DNA from: Legionella cincinnatiensis
GTDB lineage: Bacteria; Pseudomonadota; Gammaproteobacteria; Legionellales; Legionellaceae
Assembly: GCF_900452415.1 (NCBI RefSeq)
Contig: NZ_UGNX01000001.1
Location: 2,666,001-2,730,000 of the forward strand
Length of the DNA stretch: 64,000 nucleotides
Reading direction: 5' to 3'
Shown: in pieces, positions 3,767-30,389 of the stretch
Layout of the letters: each line of letters begins with the position of its first letter
Numbering within the stretch: position 1 is the first letter of the stretch
The notes under the pieces: generated by a model
Told to the model about the DNA's origin: nothing
The model's input: only the letters and a program-made list of their open reading frames with translations
Database searches by the model: none
Made by a program: the position numbers and the translations under genes

Positions 3767-4133
3767 AAATTACCACATCACCAGATTTTGAATATTATAC
3801 TTCTTCATTTTCGCGGCAGCGAAAATCCATTTCTATAGGAACATTATGCCTTCATCAACAACTCAGATTCTTCTTAATCGCTCCTTAAGATTAGTATGGT
3901 AATCTTCTTATAAATTGAAATGCTAACGTTCATTCCTGCTATGAAATGGAAACTATAGAGCTTGACTTAATAAAATGTATGTTTATCTTTAGTAATGAGG
4001 ATCATGAAAATAATTGGAATCTAGCAACTCATAACGTTGCAAACTGATTTCTTTAATAATAATTAAAAGCGTGAATGAGAGCACAAAAACTTGTGTTATA
4101 CTCAAAGTAACATACTTTTTATATTAAGATAAT
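3767..4133. other. intergenic region with hairpin
   Basis: No gene seen. A perfect hairpin ATTTTCGC-GGCA-GCGAAAAT sits at 3807-3826 downstream of mltD; it lacks a clear T-run, so it is only a possible terminator. TATACT at 4097-4102 is a -10-like hexamer about 32 bases before yciB. The rest is plain AT-rich sequence. Confidence 0.4.
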
Positions 4134-4679
4134 ATGAAATTACTCTTTGATTTTTTTCCTATAGTTTTATTTTTTATTGTATACAAATTTTTCGGCATCT
4201 ATACCGCTACTGCCGTTGCGATGATCGCCTCTGTAAGTCAGGTAGCTTTTTATAGATTAAAATTTCAGCATTATGAAAAAATGCATTTAATCAGTTTAGC
4301 CATAATTATGATCCTAGGAGGAGCAACTCTCTTTTTCCATAATCCTTGGTTCATTAAATTAAAACCAACAGGGATTTATTGGCTCTCCGCATTAGTCTTT
4401 TTTGGTTCAGGGTATATAGGTGGTAAGCCTTTGATTCAAAAAATGATGGAAACTAATGTGACATTGCCTAAAAGAATATGGCAACGATTAAATACAGCTT
4501 GGGCATTATTTTTTCTTTTAATGGGCGCTGTCAATATTTATGTAGCGTATAACTTTAATACTGATGCCTGGGTTAACTTTAAATTATTTGGTGGGGTTGG
4601 TCTGACCCTGCTTTTTGTATTAATTCAAGCTTTTTATCTTACAAAGCACATGGATGGAACTGAACTTGAGAAACAGTAG
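4134..4679 (+). CDS. yciB: YciB family inner-membrane septation protein
   Basis: 181 residues, usual length for YciB (IspZ). Five hydrophobic segments cover most of the chain: about 4-34, 50-70, 80-97, 119-138 and 148-170. Family motifs include [13 protein letters not shown] at the start, [10 protein letters not shown] in the middle and [10 protein letters not shown]. YciB is an inner-membrane protein linked to cell-envelope synthesis and septation. It ends 8 bp before pmrA, so it may be co-transcribed with the two-component pair, although a -10-like site lies only upstream of yciB. Confidence 0.92.
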
Positions 4680-5365: not shown

Positions 5366-6774
5366 AATCGTCTATACGTAAGTTTCTCCTTATAAATCTT
5401 TTATTGGCCATTACCATAACGACCACCTTAACTGCTATAGGAAACTATTATCTTGATCAAAAAGATATTCAGGATCACCTAGATACTTTAATGGCTGTTT
5501 CCGCACTATCTTATCAGGCTCTACTCGGTGATGATCTCCATCAACGTCCTCTTACCAAAATTCAAGATGCACTTGAAACAATTCCACAGAAAATTGATAC
5601 CTTCTATAAAAAACGATTTTTAAATGATGAACCTCCAGAAAATTATCTCGACAAATTTAATTTTCAAGTTTGGACTAATGGGGGAAAATTGTTACTTCAT
5701 TCATCAACAGCCCCCAAAATTCCATTAGCTTCCGAAATTGATGGCTTTAGTGACAAAAAAATATCCAATCAAGATTGGCGTGTATTCACTACTTATAATG
5801 ATAAAGCAGGCATACGAACAGTACTTGCGGAACGTTATGATACCCGTAATGAACTAGGACATAGAATTGCTCAAGACGATCTTTATATTATGCTTTTGAC
5901 TTTTCCATTATCTGGTCTATTGATTTGGATAATTATTGGTCGAGGATTAGATAGTTTGGATAAAGTAGCAGAAGAAGTAGCAAACCGAGCACCTACTCAT
6001 CTTGAGCCCGTTGATCTGCATGAAGTACCTGAGGAAATTAAACCTGTCATTGATGAGTTGAATAAATTATTTTTTAGACTTAAAGAAGGATTTGAGCGAG
6101 AAAAACGTTTTGCAGCTGATGCAGCACATGAATTACGTACTCCTCTTGCGGCACTTAAAACACAAGCACAAGTTGCTTTGCATTCCAATGATATAGAAGA
6201 AAAAAATCAAGCATTACAAAAGCTTATTGCCAGTGTTAATCGAAGTACTCATATAGTACAACAGCTTCTAACCATGAGCAGGCTTGTTCCTGAAGCGGCT
6301 CACATGGATGAGAAAGATGAGGTAAATTTAAGCAGATTAACTCGAGAGATACTTGCGATGCTCGCACCAGCAGCAGTGGAAAAACAAATTGATCTTGAGT
6401 TCGAAAGTAATACTGAAAATCTAACTGTTTATGGGAATTCAACCGCATTAGGTATATTGATTCGTAATCTTGTAGATAACTCCATCCGTTACTGCAATGA
6501 ACACGGACGCATTTTAGTACGTCTCTCAAAGCTTCAAAATGAAGTAATGCTCGAAGTAAGTGATAATGGTCCAGGAATTCCAGCGGAATTACAATCTCGT
6601 GTCTTTGAACGCTTTTTCCGTGTCTTGGGAAATAAAAGTCCAGGAAGTGGTCTTGGTTTGGCAATTGTTCAACAAATTGCTGAACTACACGGCGGCAGAT
6701 TATTTTTAGACACCCCTAAAGAAGGTACAGGACTCATTGTACGATTCTTTTTACCTATCCAGGAAAATAGCTAA
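5362..6774 (+). CDS. pmrB: sensor histidine kinase PmrB
   Basis: 470 residues with a GTG start in the 4-base overlap GTGA. Transmembrane helices lie at about 8-28 and 170-192 and bracket a periplasmic sensor region. A HAMP-like linker follows, then a HisKA domain with AADAAHELRTPLAALKTQ carrying the phosphoacceptor His near residue 256. The HATPase domain has N-box NLVDNSIRY, G1 DNGPGIP and G2 GSGLGLAI. It phosphorylates PmrA. In L. pneumophila the PmrAB system regulates effector and stress genes; the direct signal is not evident here. Confidence 0.9.
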   Translation: MKSSIRKFLLINLLLAITITTTLTAIGNYYLDQKDIQDHLDTLMAVSALSYQALLGDDLHQRPLTKIQDALETIPQKIDTFYKKRFLNDEPPENYLDKFNFQVWTNGGKLLLHSSTAPKIPLASEIDGFSDKKISNQDWRVFTTYNDKAGIRTVLAERYDTRNELGHRIAQDDLYIMLLTFPLSGLLIWIIIGRGLDSLDKVAEEVANRAPTHLEPVDLHEVPEEIKPVIDELNKLFFRLKEGFEREKRFAADAAHELRTPLAALKTQAQVALHSNDIEEKNQALQKLIASVNRSTHIVQQLLTMSRLVPEAAHMDEKDEVNLSRLTREILAMLAPAAVEKQIDLEFESNTENLTVYGNSTALGILIRNLVDNSIRYCNEHGRILVRLSKLQNEVMLEVSDNGPGIPAELQSRVFERFFRVLGNKSPGSGLGLAIVQQIAELHGGRLFLDTPKEGTGLIVRFFLPIQENS

Positions 6775-24935: not shown

Positions 24936-25278
24936 ATGACTAATTTCATCAAACGGACAATTGAATTAGCAACAGAGAATGTAAAACAAGGAGGTCGTCC
25001 CTTCGCCTGCATTATTACCCAAAATAATGTAATTGTTGCCGAAGGCACCAATCAGGTTGCACAAACCAAGGATCCAACTGCGCATGCGGAAATTGTAGCC
25101 ATACGTGAAGCAACTGCTAAGTTAAAGACAGAACATTTAACAGATTGTGAGTTTTTTATTTTAGCTCATCCTTGTCCAATGTGTTTAGCAGCAATGTATT
25201 ATTGTAGCCCATTGAAAGTAACCTTTATTACTACAAGAGATGAATACAAAAAATATTACGAGGATCATCGCAAATATT
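24936..25278 (+). pseudogene. guanine-deaminase-like gene, 5' part, split by IS66 element
   Basis: Cytidine-deaminase-fold nucleoside deaminase. The zinc site is intact: HAEIVAIREA (His-Ala-Glu) and HPCPMCLAAMYYC (Pro-Cys-x-x-Cys). GGRPFACII and NQVAQTKDPTAHAE are like bacterial guanine deaminase. The reading frame runs into the IS and stops at 25307 after an IS-encoded tail SEFSAIVRD, giving 123 residues. The rest of the gene is at 29536-29678. Removing the element and one 8-bp target copy restores 486 bp, an uninterrupted 161-residue protein, the expected family length. The truncated product lacks the C-terminal helices that shape the substrate pocket, so it is probably inactive. Confidence 0.92.
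25271..25278. repeat. 8-bp target-site duplication, left copy
   Basis: CAAATATT, repeated at 29528-29535 at the other end of the element. An 8-bp duplication is the IS66-family hallmark. Confidence 0.9.
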
Positions 25279-25358
25279 CTGAGTTTTCGGCAATCGTGCG
25301 TGACTAAAGACAGTTCAGTTGTTTAGCTATATCCTCGAAGAATTTAGGAGGCGACTTA

Positions 25359-25705
25359 ATGATAAATGGCACCAATAAACTAGAAACTGTCAAACAAGCA
25401 TTTAGACACAGGCGAGTTACACGAATAAAACGAGGGCAAATTCCTGATGAGTTATGGGAACAAGTCAAGGGATTATTGGGTGACTATACGCCTTCGAAAA
25501 TTGGCAGTCATTTAGGGATTTAGTCTAATCCAAATCAGGAAAAAATTATTGCCTGTAGAGAAAACGGACCTGCAGTTTGTTGAGATAAAAGGAAAACCTA
25601 CGAGGCTTGATTCAGAGTTTCTATCGAATAGCGATGCGCTTTGTAGTGCTGAACTTCATCGTCCCTGTGGCAGTATACTGAAAATCAATGCAGTACCGAT
25701 GAGTT
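25359..25705 (+). pseudogene. IS66 orfA, degraded left copy
   Basis: Starts MINGTNKLETVKQAFRH and matches the right-hand orfA nearly codon for codon, but an extra T near 25519 (ggatttagtc versus ggattagtcc) shifts the frame into a TAG stop after SHLGI. The matching reading frame resumes at about 25549 with QFVEIKGKPTRLDSEFLSNS. Homology to the right copy ends near GCAGTACCGATGAGT (25688-25702); unrelated GC-rich sequence follows. The SD (AGGAGG) is conserved. Confidence 0.85.
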
Positions 25706-25814
25706 GGCGAGTCGATTTCGGGGACTGGGACGTCCCGGAATCTTTCACGAGGTAGCGCGACCCTTGCAAAGTAGCAGTTAATTTGTTGAACGCTTACGAA
25801 TAAATTTGACTAAT

Positions 25815-26714
25815 TCACAATGGTACAGAGTGTAATAAATATTCTGTTTGATTCGCTAAATCTACTTTATCATTGTGTTTTATGTTTGTCTGTTCAATTT
25901 TTTCTGGACAACTTAAATATTCATACTCGTCTGCTGTAATGGGAAAGGTGAAATAATCATTATAATTATTGAGTATTACTTTTTCAGCAGTAGTTGGATT
26001 ATTGTTTGTATCCAATAAAATATTTTCATGCTCTGCTCTGCTTAGTATGGCAAAACCGAGTTTTCTTAAAAGCTCTTGATAATTAGAGTTAGGTATACCT
26101 GTGCCAGAGATATCTCCTTTTTCTGTAATCCTATAATTATCATTAACACCAAAGTATTGTTTTAATTTAAGTGTTATATTGCTTGGAATAAGTTGTTGGT
26201 TCTTTTTGAAAAAATCAGACAATGCATTAAGAATAGTAGCTTTATCATCATAAAACTCAAAATGTATTTCATCATTTGGATTTGCTAAAGCGATATATTG
26301 TAATTGCGCATAAATCAGGGTGATTTTGAGCTCATCGAATAAGTATGATGCATGTGAACCAACCGTTTTATTAGTATATTCATTGGTAGCACATTCAAAA
26401 GCAGTTCCCATTTTTAAACCATTGTATATATCAGTCATCCAGAATGGAATAAATTCAGCTCCGATTTCTTTAGCAAAACAAGGAATATTCTCAAAAGCAT
26501 AACCATTTATATTTTCATCGGCATTATACTGTTCGGTACCAAAAGATTGACGATTGGAACCAATCAAAACGTATGCTTTATCATAATTGCGGTTTTTGTT
26601 TATGAGTAATTGCTGCAAATCTTCGTTAATTTGAAGAAAGTCATCCGGATCTATAGCGAAACGGACGGGATTTAAACAGCCATCATAATCGAAGGAATAA
26701 ACAATTTTAGTCAT
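25815..26714 (-). CDS. HAD-superfamily-like protein, IS66 passenger
   Basis: 299 residues; SD TAGGA seven bases before the ATG. The N-terminus YSFDYDGCLNPV gives a HAD motif I (Asp-x-Asp-Gly); YVLIGSNRQSF fits motif II (Ser after a hydrophobic strand), and HFEFYDDKATIL fits the motif IV Asp pair. A Lys for motif III is uncertain. The fold suggests a phosphatase or phosphotransferase. There is no signal peptide or membrane segment. I recall Legionella effector-like proteins opening with SFDFDGCL, but no specific family is claimed. Its position inside the IS66-derived element, with its own SD and AT-rich composition, marks it as cargo rather than a transposition gene. Confidence 0.75.
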   Translation of the reverse strand: MTKIVYSFDYDGCLNPVRFAIDPDDFLQINEDLQQLLINKNRNYDKAYVLIGSNRQSFGTEQYNADENINGYAFENIPCFAKEIGAEFIPFWMTDIYNGLKMGTAFECATNEYTNKTVGSHASYLFDELKITLIYAQLQYIALANPNDEIHFEFYDDKATILNALSDFFKKNQQLIPSNITLKLKQYFGVNDNYRITEKGDISGTGIPNSNYQELLRKLGFAILSRAEHENILLDTNNNPTTAEKVILNNYNDYFTFPITADEYEYLSCPEKIEQTNIKHNDKVDLANQTEYLLHSVPL

Positions 26715-26864
26715 ACTTTTTCCTAATTAATTTATTAATAAAGTTAGTCCAGAGTTTTTAGAGCTATTGCACAACTCTGAGGCGAATATTATTAAATAAA
26801 AATTCTTAAGTCTTACTTAATAAGTTATGAAATTTGTAAATAACTCCATATACATTTTGGAATA

Positions 26865-26962
26865 TCATGGTTATAGCGCTAGAGCATAAATGATTTAAAT
26901 TTGCGCATAAAGATTCATCGCGATATGCAAATTTATAACCATGACGGTTTTGTTTAAATCAT
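26865..26962. repeat. long imperfect inverted repeat inside the IS66 element
   Basis: TCATGGTTATA (26865-26875) pairs perfectly with TATAACCATGA (26934-26944). An inner TAAATTTGCGCAT/ATGCAAATTTA pair extends the stem with a small bulge, and ATGATTTAAA (about 26890) can alternatively pair with TTTAAATCAT (26953-26962). It lies in the 346-bp non-coding gap between the divergent HAD-like and tnpC genes. It could be a relic IS end, an operator or a structured leader. Confidence 0.6.
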
Positions 26963-27081
26963 ATTTATCAAGACGTAACTCCATAGATAACGTGACTTTG
27001 CAACAAAAATCATTGATTTTCAGCACAACCTATTGATTTTATTACGACTGCTAGCTAATCTTGCTGCCATTAAGAGGAGCA

Positions 27082-28716
27082 ATGTTGCTAATGACACCAG
27101 CAAAAGAATTACCTATTGTCATTGAGAAATCACAGGAAGAAGTTGATCAGATCGTTGCATTAGTGCACTCATCAAACCTACCTGAGTGCACAAAACCGTT
27201 TGTCATTGGGTGTATTAACCTGGCTTCTTGGATCCCGAGGGCACTGATCGAGCATAAAATCACTGTATCCAATTTAAAGCGGCTTATCTTTGACAAGACT
27301 ACTAAACATCACGACAAATCTTTAAAGGTAGAACAAAATAACACTGCCGCAGAAGAACCTGCGCCCAGCCAATCAAATGATGAGAGCAATGAGCCCAAAG
27401 AACCCACAGGACATGGACGCCTTCCACATACTGCCTACATCAATGCACAGGAACACACCATTGCCTTAGAGTCCCTAAGTGCTGGACAACTATGCCCACA
27501 TCACTGTGGTGGCAGGCTTTATTCCATCAATCCTGGCATCCTCATTAATATAAAAGGACAAAATCTAGCATCCGTTAATAAATATTGGATTGAGAAGCTG
27601 CGATGTGCTTTATGCAATGAGATATTTTCAGCTAATATTCCGGCTCATGTCCACCAGGAAAAATATCATCCAAGTTTTAAAGCCATGTTAGCCTTACAAA
27701 AATACTACATGGCCATGCCTTTTCATCGACAAGAATATTTTCAATCGCTCATTGGCTTTCCCATTCCCTCCTCTACCCAATGGCAACTCATGGAAGAATT
27801 AGCTGGATGTGCATTGTTAGTATTCCCTGCTTTAGAGGAACTCGCAGCGAATGGCTCTTTAATTCACAATGACGATACGGTGCTTCGAATTGTAGATACG
27901 ATTCGGCACAACAGACTAAACCCTGATAAAAAACGAACTGGCATGTACACCACAGGAATATTGGCACAAAACGGCGCCCATAAAATAGCACTCTTTTATA
28001 ACAGCCAACGTCACTCTGGCGAAAACATGGAGCGCCTTCTTAATAAGCGCCATAAGAATAATGGCAAGGTCATCCAAATGTGTGATGCACTAAGTCATAA
28101 TATCCCAGTGACCCATGACACCATTGTATGTAACTGCTTGTCTCATGGCTTTCGTAAGTTTGAAGAGTTACAAACATTTTACCCGGAACACTGTTTGCCT
28201 ATCATGAAATGGCTTTCTATTCCATTTAAGATGGATGAGGAATCAAAACAACTTGGACATGATGAACAACAGCGTCTAGTCTACCACCAGAAGTACAGCA
28301 AAACTGCAATGCTTGAAGCCCGAGCGTACATGGAGAAACTGCTGTCATCCAAACAAGTCGAGCCTAATGATTCCTTAGGCAAAGCCATAAAATATATGCT
28401 GAAGCATTGGGAGAGACTCACCCGTTTTCTACAAATTCCTGGTGCGCCCATCCACAACAATGACTTGGAGCGAGGGTTAAAAATCCCTATCCGAGGACGT
28501 AACACCTGGTTCTTTTATAAAACCGAATACGGCGCTATGGTAGGTGGCGTACTCACCAGCATTATTTATACCTGTGAGTTATCCGGCATTAATCCCTTTG
28601 AATACCTGGTTGCACTGCAGGTTTACAAAGACCAAATTGTTAAAGAACCTCAAGCCTGGCTTCCCTGGAATTACGAAAACACGTTGGCTTCATTAGAATC
28701 ATCACTGGCCGCATAA
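27082..28716 (+). CDS. IS66 family transposase (TnpC)
   Basis: About 544 residues, intact. N-terminal leucine-rich region, zinc-finger-like CPHHCGG...CALC (about 138-188), then the IS66 DDE core: LIHNDDTVLRI, VIQMCDALSHN and the Glu in HNNDLERGLKIPIRGRNTWFF. The C-terminal domain ends in NPFEYLVALQVYKDQIV-type sequence. The start is uncertain (ATG 27082, TTG 27085 or ATG 27091), all served by AGAGGAG at 27074-27079. It points opposite to tnpA and tnpB, and its last 46 bases overlap the end of tnpB antisense, which is abnormal for IS66. Confidence 0.92.
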   Translation: MLLMTPAKELPIVIEKSQEEVDQIVALVHSSNLPECTKPFVIGCINLASWIPRALIEHKITVSNLKRLIFDKTTKHHDKSLKVEQNNTAAEEPAPSQSNDESNEPKEPTGHGRLPHTAYINAQEHTIALESLSAGQLCPHHCGGRLYSINPGILINIKGQNLASVNKYWIEKLRCALCNEIFSANIPAHVHQEKYHPSFKAMLALQKYYMAMPFHRQEYFQSLIGFPIPSSTQWQLMEELAGCALLVFPALEELAANGSLIHNDDTVLRIVDTIRHNRLNPDKKRTGMYTTGILAQNGAHKIALFYNSQRHSGENMERLLNKRHKNNGKVIQMCDALSHNIPVTHDTIVCNCLSHGFRKFEELQTFYPEHCLPIMKWLSIPFKMDEESKQLGHDEQQRLVYHQKYSKTAMLEARAYMEKLLSSKQVEPNDSLGKAIKYMLKHWERLTRFLQIPGAPIHNNDLERGLKIPIRGRNTWFFYKTEYGAMVGGVLTSIIYTCELSGINPFEYLVALQVYKDQIVKEPQAWLPWNYENTLASLESSLAA

Positions 28717-29063
28717 GCCATAGAACGCCAATCGTCTGGAAGGCTTGCTTTTATGGGATGGCCTTGGGCAAGCAGTATCAATAACTCACTGGAGCGTAAT
28801 TGAACAGAGGGACCCAATCCACTAGGCCACCAAGCCAGCTTGCCTCGACTGAACCGTTTCTGGCATAGCCAAAAACCACTCGCATCATACACTAATAGTT
28901 TCACTGAGGTACGCATGCGATTGGTAAAAACAAATACGGTACCGCTGAATGGGTCATCAAGTAGCTTTTGTCGGCATAAGGCTTTTAAGCCATCGATGCC
29001 TTTTCTAAAATCAACGGGTTCAACAGCAAGTAACAACCGATGTTGTGGGGTAATCTGCAGCAT
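28671..29063 (-). CDS. IS66 accessory protein TnpB
   Basis: 130 residues of the IS66 Orf2 family: LAVEPVDFRKGIDGLKALCRQKL, FVFTNRMRTSVKLLVYDASGFWLCQKRF and KLAWWPSGLG are family motifs. Required with TnpC for transposition of IS66-type elements. It begins two bases after the orfA stop. The last dozen or so residues (from about AASDDSNEANVFS) are encoded on the antisense strand of the tnpC 3' end, so the native C-terminus was probably replaced when the element rearranged. Confidence 0.9.
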   Translation of the reverse strand: MLQITPQHRLLLAVEPVDFRKGIDGLKALCRQKLLDDPFSGTVFVFTNRMRTSVKLLVYDASGFWLCQKRFSRGKLAWWPSGLGPSVQLRSSELLILLAQGHPIKASLPDDWRSMAYAASDDSNEANVFS

Positions 29064-29065
29064 CG

Positions 29066-29446
29066 TTACCCCATAAAATCCAGCATGAGTTTTGATATCC
29101 TACTCATCGGTACTGCGTTGATTTTCAGTATACTGCCACAGGGGCGATGAAGTTCAACACTACAAGGCGCATCGCTATTTGATAGAAACTCTGAATCAAG
29201 CCTCGTAGGTTTTCCTTTTACCTCAACAAACTGCGGACTAGTATTCTGGACAGGTACTAATTTTTTCCTGATTTGGATTGGACTAATCCCTAAATGACTG
29301 CCGATTTTCGAAGGAGTATAATCAACCAATAGTCCCTTGACCTGCTCCCATAACTCATCGGGGATTTGCCCGCGTTTTGTTCTTGTGGATCGCCAGTGTC
29401 TAAAGGCTTGTTTGACAGTTTCTAGTTTATTGGTGCCATTTATCAT
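29066..29446 (-). CDS. IS66 orfA/TnpA-like protein, intact right copy
   Basis: 126 residues from ATG 29446 (AGGAGG seven bases upstream; the longer in-frame start lacks an SD). MINGTNKLETVKQAFRHWRS, RGQIPDELWEQVKGLL and YTPSKIGSHLGISPIQI contain a helix-turn-helix-like segment expected of this accessory protein. It is followed two bases later by tnpB. The frameshifted twin is at 25359-25705 in inverted orientation. Confidence 0.85.
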   Translation of the reverse strand: MINGTNKLETVKQAFRHWRSTRTKRGQIPDELWEQVKGLLVDYTPSKIGSHLGISPIQIRKKLVPVQNTSPQFVEVKGKPTRLDSEFLSNSDAPCSVELHRPCGSILKINAVPMSRISKLMLDFMG

Positions 29447-29527
29447 TGAGTCGCCTCCTAAAATCATTGAGGCTATAGGCTAAACAACAACTCTGTCTTT
29501 AGTCACGCTCGCTTGCCGAAAACTCAG

Positions 29528-29535
29528 CAAATATT
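29528..29535. repeat. 8-bp target-site duplication, right copy
   Basis: CAAATATT, identical to 25271-25278. Confidence 0.9.
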
Positions 29536-29678
29536 TTACTCTCGATAATTTCTATGGGGAATTTGCTAAATCATGGCAAGAACGTAACCTGCCTATGGAA
29601 CATCACAGCGATCCAGAGGGTATTGAGGTGTATAAACTTTGGCAAAAAATGAACCTGAACGCCAACCCTAAACGTTGA
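29536..29678 (+). pseudogene. guanine-deaminase-like gene, 3' part
   Basis: Continues the frame of 24936-25278. After joining across the duplication it reads RKYFTLDNFYGEFAKSW, then QERNLPMEHHSDPEG and a C-terminus KMNLNANPKR before TGA at 29676-29678. This is the typical C-terminal segment of bacterial guanine deaminases. No start codon or SD makes it translatable on its own. Confidence 0.9.
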
Positions 29679-29711
29679 ATGGCGAAAAATATGGCGATGC
29701 AATGTCCTTAT

Positions 29712-30389
29712 TTACCAAATGAATGGTATAAGCCGAGTCCGAACTTTTTTTTGATATTTTGCATACCCGGGTAAATCCCGCACAAGTATTTTCTCCTCAT
29801 TCAAGATACGGGCAACTAGAATTGAGAGTAAAACGGGGATCAAAAGCAGTGTCCACCACGATCCGAGCGCAAGCGAGGTGCCTATAAATAGAAATATGGC
29901 ACCCAAATACATCGGGTGACGAATAAATCTGTAGGGGCCGACGGTAATCACTTTTTGTCCTTCCTCAACGCGAATATTGGCGGCAGCATAAGTATTCACT
30001 TTCGAGACGAGATAAAACATATAGAATGAGAAAACAACGAGCATATCGCCTATGATCGAGATGTACCATGGTACTAACGACCAACCGCGGCGCACATCAA
30101 GCGAAGACAGAATAATAAGAGCAATACAGGTGGCAAAGAGAAAAAAGATAATGATTTTCTGAGCTGGTTCCTTTTCATACGATATGCCCGCTTCAGTACG
30201 ACGCTTAAGAAGAGCTGGATCATGTTTTGCCAAGTACATGCTGTATGCTGCAGATGCAATAATAAACACTATCACATAAACCCAACCTTGCCAGTATCTT
30301 AGGGTGCCTGCAGGAATAAAAAGGAGAGACAATAAAATAATCGTCCCCAACACTGAAGATCTAATGAGCTGTTTATAGAGCAAGTCCAT
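29712..30389 (-). CDS. isoprenylcysteine carboxyl methyltransferase (ICMT) family membrane protein
   Basis: 225 residues from ATG 30389 (GGA five bases upstream; TTG 30398 is an alternative). Five or six hydrophobic helices fill the chain (about 10-30, 36-55, 80-98, 108-130, 165-195). The C-terminal ICMT/PEMT SAM-binding motif is visible: YAAANIRVEEGQ, GPYRFIRHPMYLGAI and NEEKILVRDLPGYAKY. Bacterial members methylate unknown, probably lipid-like, substrates at the inner membrane; despite the name there is no evidence for action on prenylated proteins. It begins just after the disrupted deaminase and converges on it. Confidence 0.85.
   Translation of the reverse strand: MDLLYKQLIRSSVLGTIILLSLLFIPAGTLRYWQGWVYVIVFIIASAAYSMYLAKHDPALLKRRTEAGISYEKEPAQKIIIFFLFATCIALIILSSLDVRRGWSLVPWYISIIGDMLVVFSFYMFYLVSKVNTYAAANIRVEEGQKVITVGPYRFIRHPMYLGAIFLFIGTSLALGSWWTLLLIPVLLSILVARILNEEKILVRDLPGYAKYQKKVRTRLIPFIW

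What the first reader, a model, noticed from the sequence alone, without database searches (positions are those of the whole stretch)
25279..29527. Rearranged IS66 element with inverted 425-bp ends and a passenger gene
Seen: perfect CTGAGTTTTCGGCAA inverted termini and a perfect 8-bp duplication (CAAATATT) mark one 4249-bp insertion. Inside, the left 425 bp is an inverted copy of the right end, orfA occurs twice (one frameshifted), and a HAD-like gene is carried. Known: IS66 elements are normally about 2.5 kb with co-directional tnpA-tnpB-tnpC. Inference: the element inserted or evolved as a unit bounded by two like ends, so it may mobilise cargo as a small transposon.
Basis: partly seen in the sequence, partly recalled or inferred. 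Interest (0 to 1): 0.75.

Follow-up and report, generated by a model that had tools for sequence, protein, structure and literature searches.

The report
Small jumping gene carrying a passenger
A 4.2-kb jumping DNA element in a Legionella genome, bounded by two matching ends from different IS copies, carries an unrelated enzyme-like gene and is present as one identical piece at three places; similar elements in related bacteria carry other genes in the same position.

Summary
It moves as a unit: the genome holds three copies (this one included) with zero differences, each with its own 8-bp duplication, and two related species have the uninterrupted site with one CAAATATT. "Rearranged" is half right: tnpC facing tnpB-tnpA is the usual order of a clade of IS66-like elements in Legionellaceae and a few others. 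Special here is a second, inverted, truncated tnpA-end (429 bp, 89% identical, nearest to another lineage), which gives a matching left end outside a HAD-like passenger gene. Elements with 8-bp duplications in relatives carry other genes in the same slot: PAS-GAF-HD-GYP (L115), leucine-rich repeat (L111), unknown (L225), and kinases (L117, duplication ambiguous); one such element is bare (L128). I file it as a pseudo-composite, IS66-like passenger transposon: a new variant of a known kind. Activity and cargo function are inferred.

The parts
24936..25278 (+). 5' part of the interrupted nucleoside-deaminase gene; the 3' part lies at about 29536-29678 (end read from the sequence)
   Evidence: PF00383 1.6e-19 for the frame 24936-25307; 10 orthologs of 75% identity or more in other genomes, flanks contiguous
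25271..25278 (.). left copy of the 8-bp target-site duplication CAAATATT
   Evidence: single in L182 and L183
25279..25293 (+). left terminal inverted repeat CTGAGTTTTCGGCAA
25279..25707 (+). left arm: inverted, truncated tnpA-end of a second IS copy, with a broken tnpA frame (25359-25523 and on)
   Evidence: 89.3% to the right arm, 92.2% to the L. santicrucis copy L110
25703..25766 (.). end fragment of a dispersed Legionella repeat abutting the left arm
   Evidence: 100% in G036 (two places), 97% in G027, 95% in G019
25815..26714 (-). passenger gene, 299-aa HAD-like protein
26992..27006 (+). degenerate inner tnpC-side IS end (GTGACTTTGCAACAA), limits approximate
   Evidence: compared by eye with the same place in L004, L107, L108, L109
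27091..28716 (+). tnpC, DDE transposase; the open frame reaches back to 27061 but close relatives have a stop just before this ATG
   Evidence: PF03050 4.7e-38
28671..29063 (-). tnpB, 3' end overlaps tnpC
   Evidence: PF05717 2.7e-25
29066..29467 (-). tnpA (orfA), open frame of 133 aa
   Evidence: 98% to the L. longbeachae copy (L019/L079)
29099..29527 (-). right arm, counterpart of the left arm
   Evidence: 97.2% to L. longbeachae L108
29513..29527 (-). right terminal inverted repeat, 15/15 with the left one
29528..29535 (.). right copy of the target-site duplication CAAATATT

Best explanation
A pseudo-composite transposon of an IS66-like clade whose usual gene order is convergent (tnpC facing tnpB-tnpA). 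One complete IS copy (about 26992-29527) and the outer tnpA-end of a second, diverged copy in inverted orientation enclose a HAD-like gene. The outer left tnpA-end matches the right end perfectly over 15 bp, while the complete copy's own tnpC-side end is degenerate. TnpC, with TnpA and TnpB, most likely acts on the two outer ends, carries everything between them and makes 8-bp duplications. Shown: unit structure, three identical copies, three duplications, the empty site, and arms with different nearest relatives. Inferred: that TnpC of this element does the work, the use of the outer rather than the inner end, the order of assembly, and any function of the cargo.
For: Three 4249-bp copies, 0 differences, duplications CAAATATT, GAAAGAAC, GATTGTCT. 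Empty site with one CAAATATT in L182 and L183, flanks contiguous in 10 of 10 orthologs examined. Right part alone (IS without this cargo) colinear in G010, G013, G021 and elsewhere in G000. Left arm closest to L110 (92.2%), right arm to L108 (97.2%), to each other 89.3% (12 other arms). TnpC, TnpB and TnpA frames open, TnpC with the IS66 DDE domain. Other elements of the clade with 8-bp duplications and a different gene in the same slot: L115, L111, L225, and L117 with an ambiguous duplication; 0 of 682 mismatched end pairs gave a duplication (L225 was found later, without its own control).
Against: No transposition was observed. The native tnpC-side end of this subgroup rests on shared junctions only: the complete copies L004, L019, L021 and L107 showed no 8-base duplication at their two ends (L020 runs off its contig), and no outer left end was found for L108, L109, L110, L113. 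Identical copies could reflect gene conversion, though conversion does not create three different duplications. TnpC scores 166.6 bits, below NCBIfam's IS66 cut-off of 180.
Confidence: 0.88

Rival explanations
1. A unitary tIS66-type transposon, in which the passenger slot is a native part of the element and the left arm is simply its own left end, not a second IS copy.
For: L115, L225 and L111 have a gene in the same slot with short left ends (77% over 75 bp with the right end in L115, a short palindromic end in L111 and L225) and 8-bp duplications.
Against: In the window the left arm holds 429 bp including most of a tnpA gene, nearest to another species' copy, and the complete IS keeps a recognisable inner end. 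This fits a second IS copy better.
Confidence: 0.25
2. The inverted arms arose by intramolecular replicative transposition of one IS copy into DNA on its tnpC side, followed by truncation of the new copy.
For: It would give inverted copies with tnpA-ends outward; six other loci have an extra tnpA-end upstream of tnpC in this inverted orientation (L114, L117, L118, L119, L124, L144).
Against: The arms differ by about 11% and have different nearest relatives, so the left arm is not a recent copy of the right one. The orientation is not without exception: L216 has a 46% tnpA piece the other way round upstream of tnpC, and weak reverse end-motif matches lie there in L111 and L124 (24 of 37) and L116 (22 of 37).
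Confidence: 0.12
3. Segmental duplication by homologous recombination, or an assembly artefact, multiplied the 4.2-kb unit.
For: The three copies are identical, which collapsed repeats can mimic; reads were not available.
Against: The boundaries fall exactly at the terminal repeats, and the flanks differ and carry different 8-bp duplications. The window site is empty in relatives.
Confidence: 0.03

Closest known systems
tIS66, for example ISPa75-fosZ of Pseudomonas (PMC12888890; passages from a find)
   Same: IS66-type tnpA, tnpB and DDE transposase plus one passenger gene between the terminal repeats, target-site duplications, several insertion sites.
   Different: According to the passages the passenger lies downstream of the DDE transposase and the quoted terminal repeats begin GTAA; here it lies on the 5' side of tnpC, tnpC faces tnpB-tnpA, the ends begin CTGAG, and the left end is a 429-bp inverted tnpA-end.
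Classical IS66-family insertion sequences
   Same: TnpC with PF03050, TnpB with PF05717, 8-bp duplication.
   Different: Convergent instead of co-directional gene order; TnpC below the NCBIfam IS66 cut-off.
Composite and pseudo-composite transposons (recalled, no call)
   Same: Cargo between two IS-derived ends in inverted orientation, moving as a unit.
   Different: Only one side is a complete IS; the other is a 429-bp end nearest to a different lineage.

Membership tests
IS66 family | DDE transposase TnpC with IS66 domain | tested here: met
   PF03050 4.7e-38, 131.7 bits against cut-off 23.1; NCBIfam NF033517 8.9e-49 but 166.6 bits, under its cut-off of 180
IS66 family | TnpB accessory protein | tested here: met
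   PF05717 88.6 bits, NF033819 88.1 bits, both above cut-off
IS66 family | 8-bp target duplication (recalled as the family's length) | tested here: met
   three copies, three duplications
IS66 family | co-directional tnpA-tnpB-tnpC | tested here: not met
   tnpC opposes tnpB-tnpA; convergent also in 15 of 16 Legionellaceae loci with both genes found (exception L117, rearranged); co-directional in the Thiodictyon, Vibrio, Shewanella, Sphingobium and Rhizobium records. So it is filed as an IS66-like convergent clade, not as a classical IS66
IS66 family | terminal repeats beginning GTAA (as quoted for ISPsko1 and ISPa75 in PMC12888890) | tested here: not met
   ends begin CTGAG; relatives begin GTGA, CTGA or similar
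tIS66 (IS66 with passenger gene) | passenger gene inside the terminal repeats | tested here: met
   HAD-like gene in 3 of 3 copies
Composite transposon | two complete IS copies at the flanks | tested here: not met
   left side is 429 bp with a broken, truncated tnpA
HAD superfamily (passenger) | four sequence motifs | tested here: met
   D9, D11; S53; K130; D156, D157 invariant in 12 of the 30 sequences on hand that I aligned. That these are the HAD motifs is recalled
HAD superfamily (passenger) | fold | tested here: inconclusive
   single-sequence model pLDDT 34; profile against solved structures: two irrelevant matches at E 3.3 and 6.8

The most novel reading that the evidence does not exclude
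Legionellaceae hold a distinct transposon lineage, an IS66-like clade with convergent tnpC, whose tnpC-side slot repeatedly captures and spreads single genes, several of them resembling host-directed proteins (LegK1-like kinase, leucine-rich-repeat protein, HAD-like family). It would be a small vehicle for reshuffling such genes between and within genomes. The resemblances are partial and below curated cut-offs, and bare elements of the clade exist.
Probability: 0.4. Interest if true: 0.72.

Novelty: new variant of a known kind. Interest (0 to 1): 0.5.

Why it matters
It is a clean, apparently recent case of a one-gene transposon built from two unlike IS copies, with relatives of both copies and an empty site at hand. 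The convergent gene order of the clade and the recurrent cargo slot suggest a route, testable in existing genomes, by which Legionellaceae exchange single genes. In the listings (open-access library; titles and starts of abstracts, those papers not opened) nothing describes it.

Tried and rejected
Rejected: that the tnp order is a rearrangement of this copy. It is shared by relatives down to 33-34% TnpC identity.

Led nowhere: viral-contig scan with the TnpC alignment, 600 pattern stretches and no relative; the element against the plasmid collection, one record with a 4% hit; Rfam on 25000-29800, no match; structure model of the passenger, pLDDT 34; PDB by sequence and by profile; PHROGs, only weak hits, best 0.098; Pfam on six relatives of the passenger, no match; promoter scan, 10 sites against 12.8 expected, and terminator scan, 3 against 2.7.

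Dropped before counts: from the tree, loci with only fragments of tnpC and L110, L111, L113, L116 (22 rows kept), six looser 7/8 pairs (one in L132, three in L134, two in L130). One of these, L130 2404-7397, does enclose the tnp genes but ends 1.8 kb past tnpA and beyond a better right-end match at 5723.

Paper searches: (no paper), 43, 47, 66, 67, 70: listings with starts of abstracts. Passages were seen from PMC12888890 and PMC7371123 (the passenger genes described there are in Tn3-family transposons).

Full report
Observation. The insertion is as described: 4249 bp, 15/15 inverted termini and CAAATATT on both sides. It splits a nucleoside-deaminase gene (PF00383). Inside, reading along the + strand: left arm 25279-25707, an end fragment of a dispersed repeat, the passenger on the minus strand, tnpC on the plus strand, then tnpB and tnpA on the minus strand and the right arm.

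It moves as a unit. A search of the window's own genome found three full copies, this one included. All are 4249 bp with no difference, flanked by CAAATATT, GAAAGAAC and GATTGTCT respectively. The second copy splits a reading frame that looks like a phage-type integrase (judged by eye from the translation); the third lies near small frames. For the window site, 44 of 45 genus genomes have some match to the deaminase, many only distant. I examined the 10 best loci outside the own genome, 75% identity or more (L182-L191). In 10 of 10 the two flanks, searched separately, meet with an 8-base overlap, allowing for alignments that start or stop one or two bases short. L182 (G020) and L183 (G009), the two printed, show a single CAAATATT.

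Gene order. The right part without this cargo is colinear in G010, G013, G021 and at another place in G000. In one search, 16 Legionellaceae loci had both tnpC and tnpB. Fifteen are convergent; the sixteenth, L117, is rearranged. Seven further family loci (L208, L213, L214, L218, L224, L225, L226) and a fragment (L221) are convergent. Outside Legionellaceae, a Gammaproteobacteria MAG, a Xanthobacteraceae MAG and a Megaera plasmid are convergent; Thiodictyon, Vibrio, Shewanella, Sphingobium, Rhizobium and five MAG loci (L120, L121, L122, L125, L127) are co-directional. In a 22-row TnpC tree, 11 of the 12 convergent rows form one group (support 88/97, not starred) and the Xanthobacteraceae row stands apart. 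The label needs 2 changes against a shuffled mean of 7.5, reached by 0 of 500 shuffles; only 3% of bootstrap trees need a single change. The Megaera row is a long branch and its place is unsure.

Origin of the two arms. The left arm is 89.3% identical to the right arm, 92.2% to L. santicrucis L110 and 91.7% to L025 (326 columns only); the right arm is 97.2% identical to L. longbeachae L108 (12 other arms compared). The arms therefore most likely descend from different copies. The complete IS still shows a degenerate tnpC-side end 85-99 bp before tnpC, at the place where bare copies in other genomes begin. Those copies (L004, L019, L021, L107) showed no 8-base duplication at their ends, and no outer left end was found for L108, L109, L110 and L113, which leaves their exact left end unproven.

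Passenger. At 100% the gene was found only in the three copies; 35 of 45 genomes hold some match, and the ten next best by score have 33-41% identity. Of 29 related proteins, 21 are 400-550 aa long. Residues expected of the four HAD motifs are invariant in 12 of these 30 sequences that I aligned. No Pfam, NCBIfam or solved-structure match was found for the window protein. Of the 12 aligned members, 3 match the NCBIfam model LegK1 and 1 the model AnkF at 0.1 or better. L049 does so with its C-terminal part, far under the cut-off, while L060 and L065 gave nothing at 0.001; the window protein matches neither model. G+C is 31.2% for the passenger against 42.7% for tnpC.

Other cargo. I scanned 22 loci for end pairs with an 8/8 duplication. 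Hits were L115 (4324 bp, GGTGATCA), L128 (2676 bp, bare, GATTAAAC), L111 (3357 bp, AATTAAAT), L117 (5325 bp) and the own copy L002; 682 mismatched left-right pairs gave 0. L225 (4328 bp, GTATGAAA) was found among the four loci, without a control of its own. A further scan of 27 loci at 7/8 or better added no new element that I accept: L204 and L227 are the L111 locus, L212 repeats L128, and six looser pairs in L132, L134 and L130 were dropped. L117 is ambiguous: by eye its duplication is GATCATAT inside a longer shared string, and its left end has lost about 10 bases. The left ends of L111 and L225 are weak matches (15 and 16 of 21) and palindromic. The genes in the slot are a PAS-GAF-HD-GYP protein in L115 (the name HD-GYP is my reading of HD_5), a 150-aa leucine-rich-repeat protein in L111, a 487-aa protein without a family in L225, and in L117 a kinase with a partial LegK1 match, 85.7 bits against a cut-off of 550, plus a second kinase and a cyclic-nucleotide-binding protein. 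In L115, L111 and L225, as in the window, the gene is transcribed away from tnpC; L117 holds genes of both directions. Decayed loci L114, L118, L119, L124 and L144 also have an inverted tnpA-end and genes before tnpC, without a duplication; L119 and L124 have plus-strand genes there. Against a general slot: besides L128, L134, L136 and L224 have end matches close to tnpC on the left and thus no room for cargo, though without a duplication.

Conclusion. The best reading is a pseudo-composite, IS66-like passenger transposon. The kind is known (tIS66); the convergent clade, the left end from another copy and the recurrent slot make it a new variant. Activity, the choice of ends and the function of the cargo are inference.

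Noticed in passing
L147 (NZ_CP082851.1, 1-2647): A 2647-bp linear 'plasmid' record of L. longbeachae consists of little but a bare convergent IS66-like element; it is probably a repeat contig filed as a plasmid.
   Followed up: partly
window 25703-25766; L015, L016, L037, L040, L041, L046: End of a dispersed, apparently non-coding Legionella repeat; the sequence after ...GACCCTTG or ...CACGCTTG differs between loci.
   Followed up: partly
L002 1150-1548 and 5830-6648: The second copy of the transposon splits a gene that reads like a phage-type integrase, with duplication GAAAGAAC.
   Followed up: no
L111 about 2902-2935; L225 about 2317-2350: Left ends of two relatives are palindromes, an end facing an inverted copy of itself.
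   Followed up: no
L004 about 4042-4294 (G000:C1, near 2203049-2203316): A decayed copy of the IS in the same genome sits next to a second, 75-76% identical tnpA-end.
   Followed up: no
L196 (AP017965.1): A plasmid of Candidatus Megaera (Rickettsiales) carries the same convergent tnp order.
   Followed up: partly
L049:898-2163, residues 300-404 of the protein: A relative of the passenger protein matches the C-terminal part of the NCBIfam model LegK1, below cut-off.
   Followed up: no
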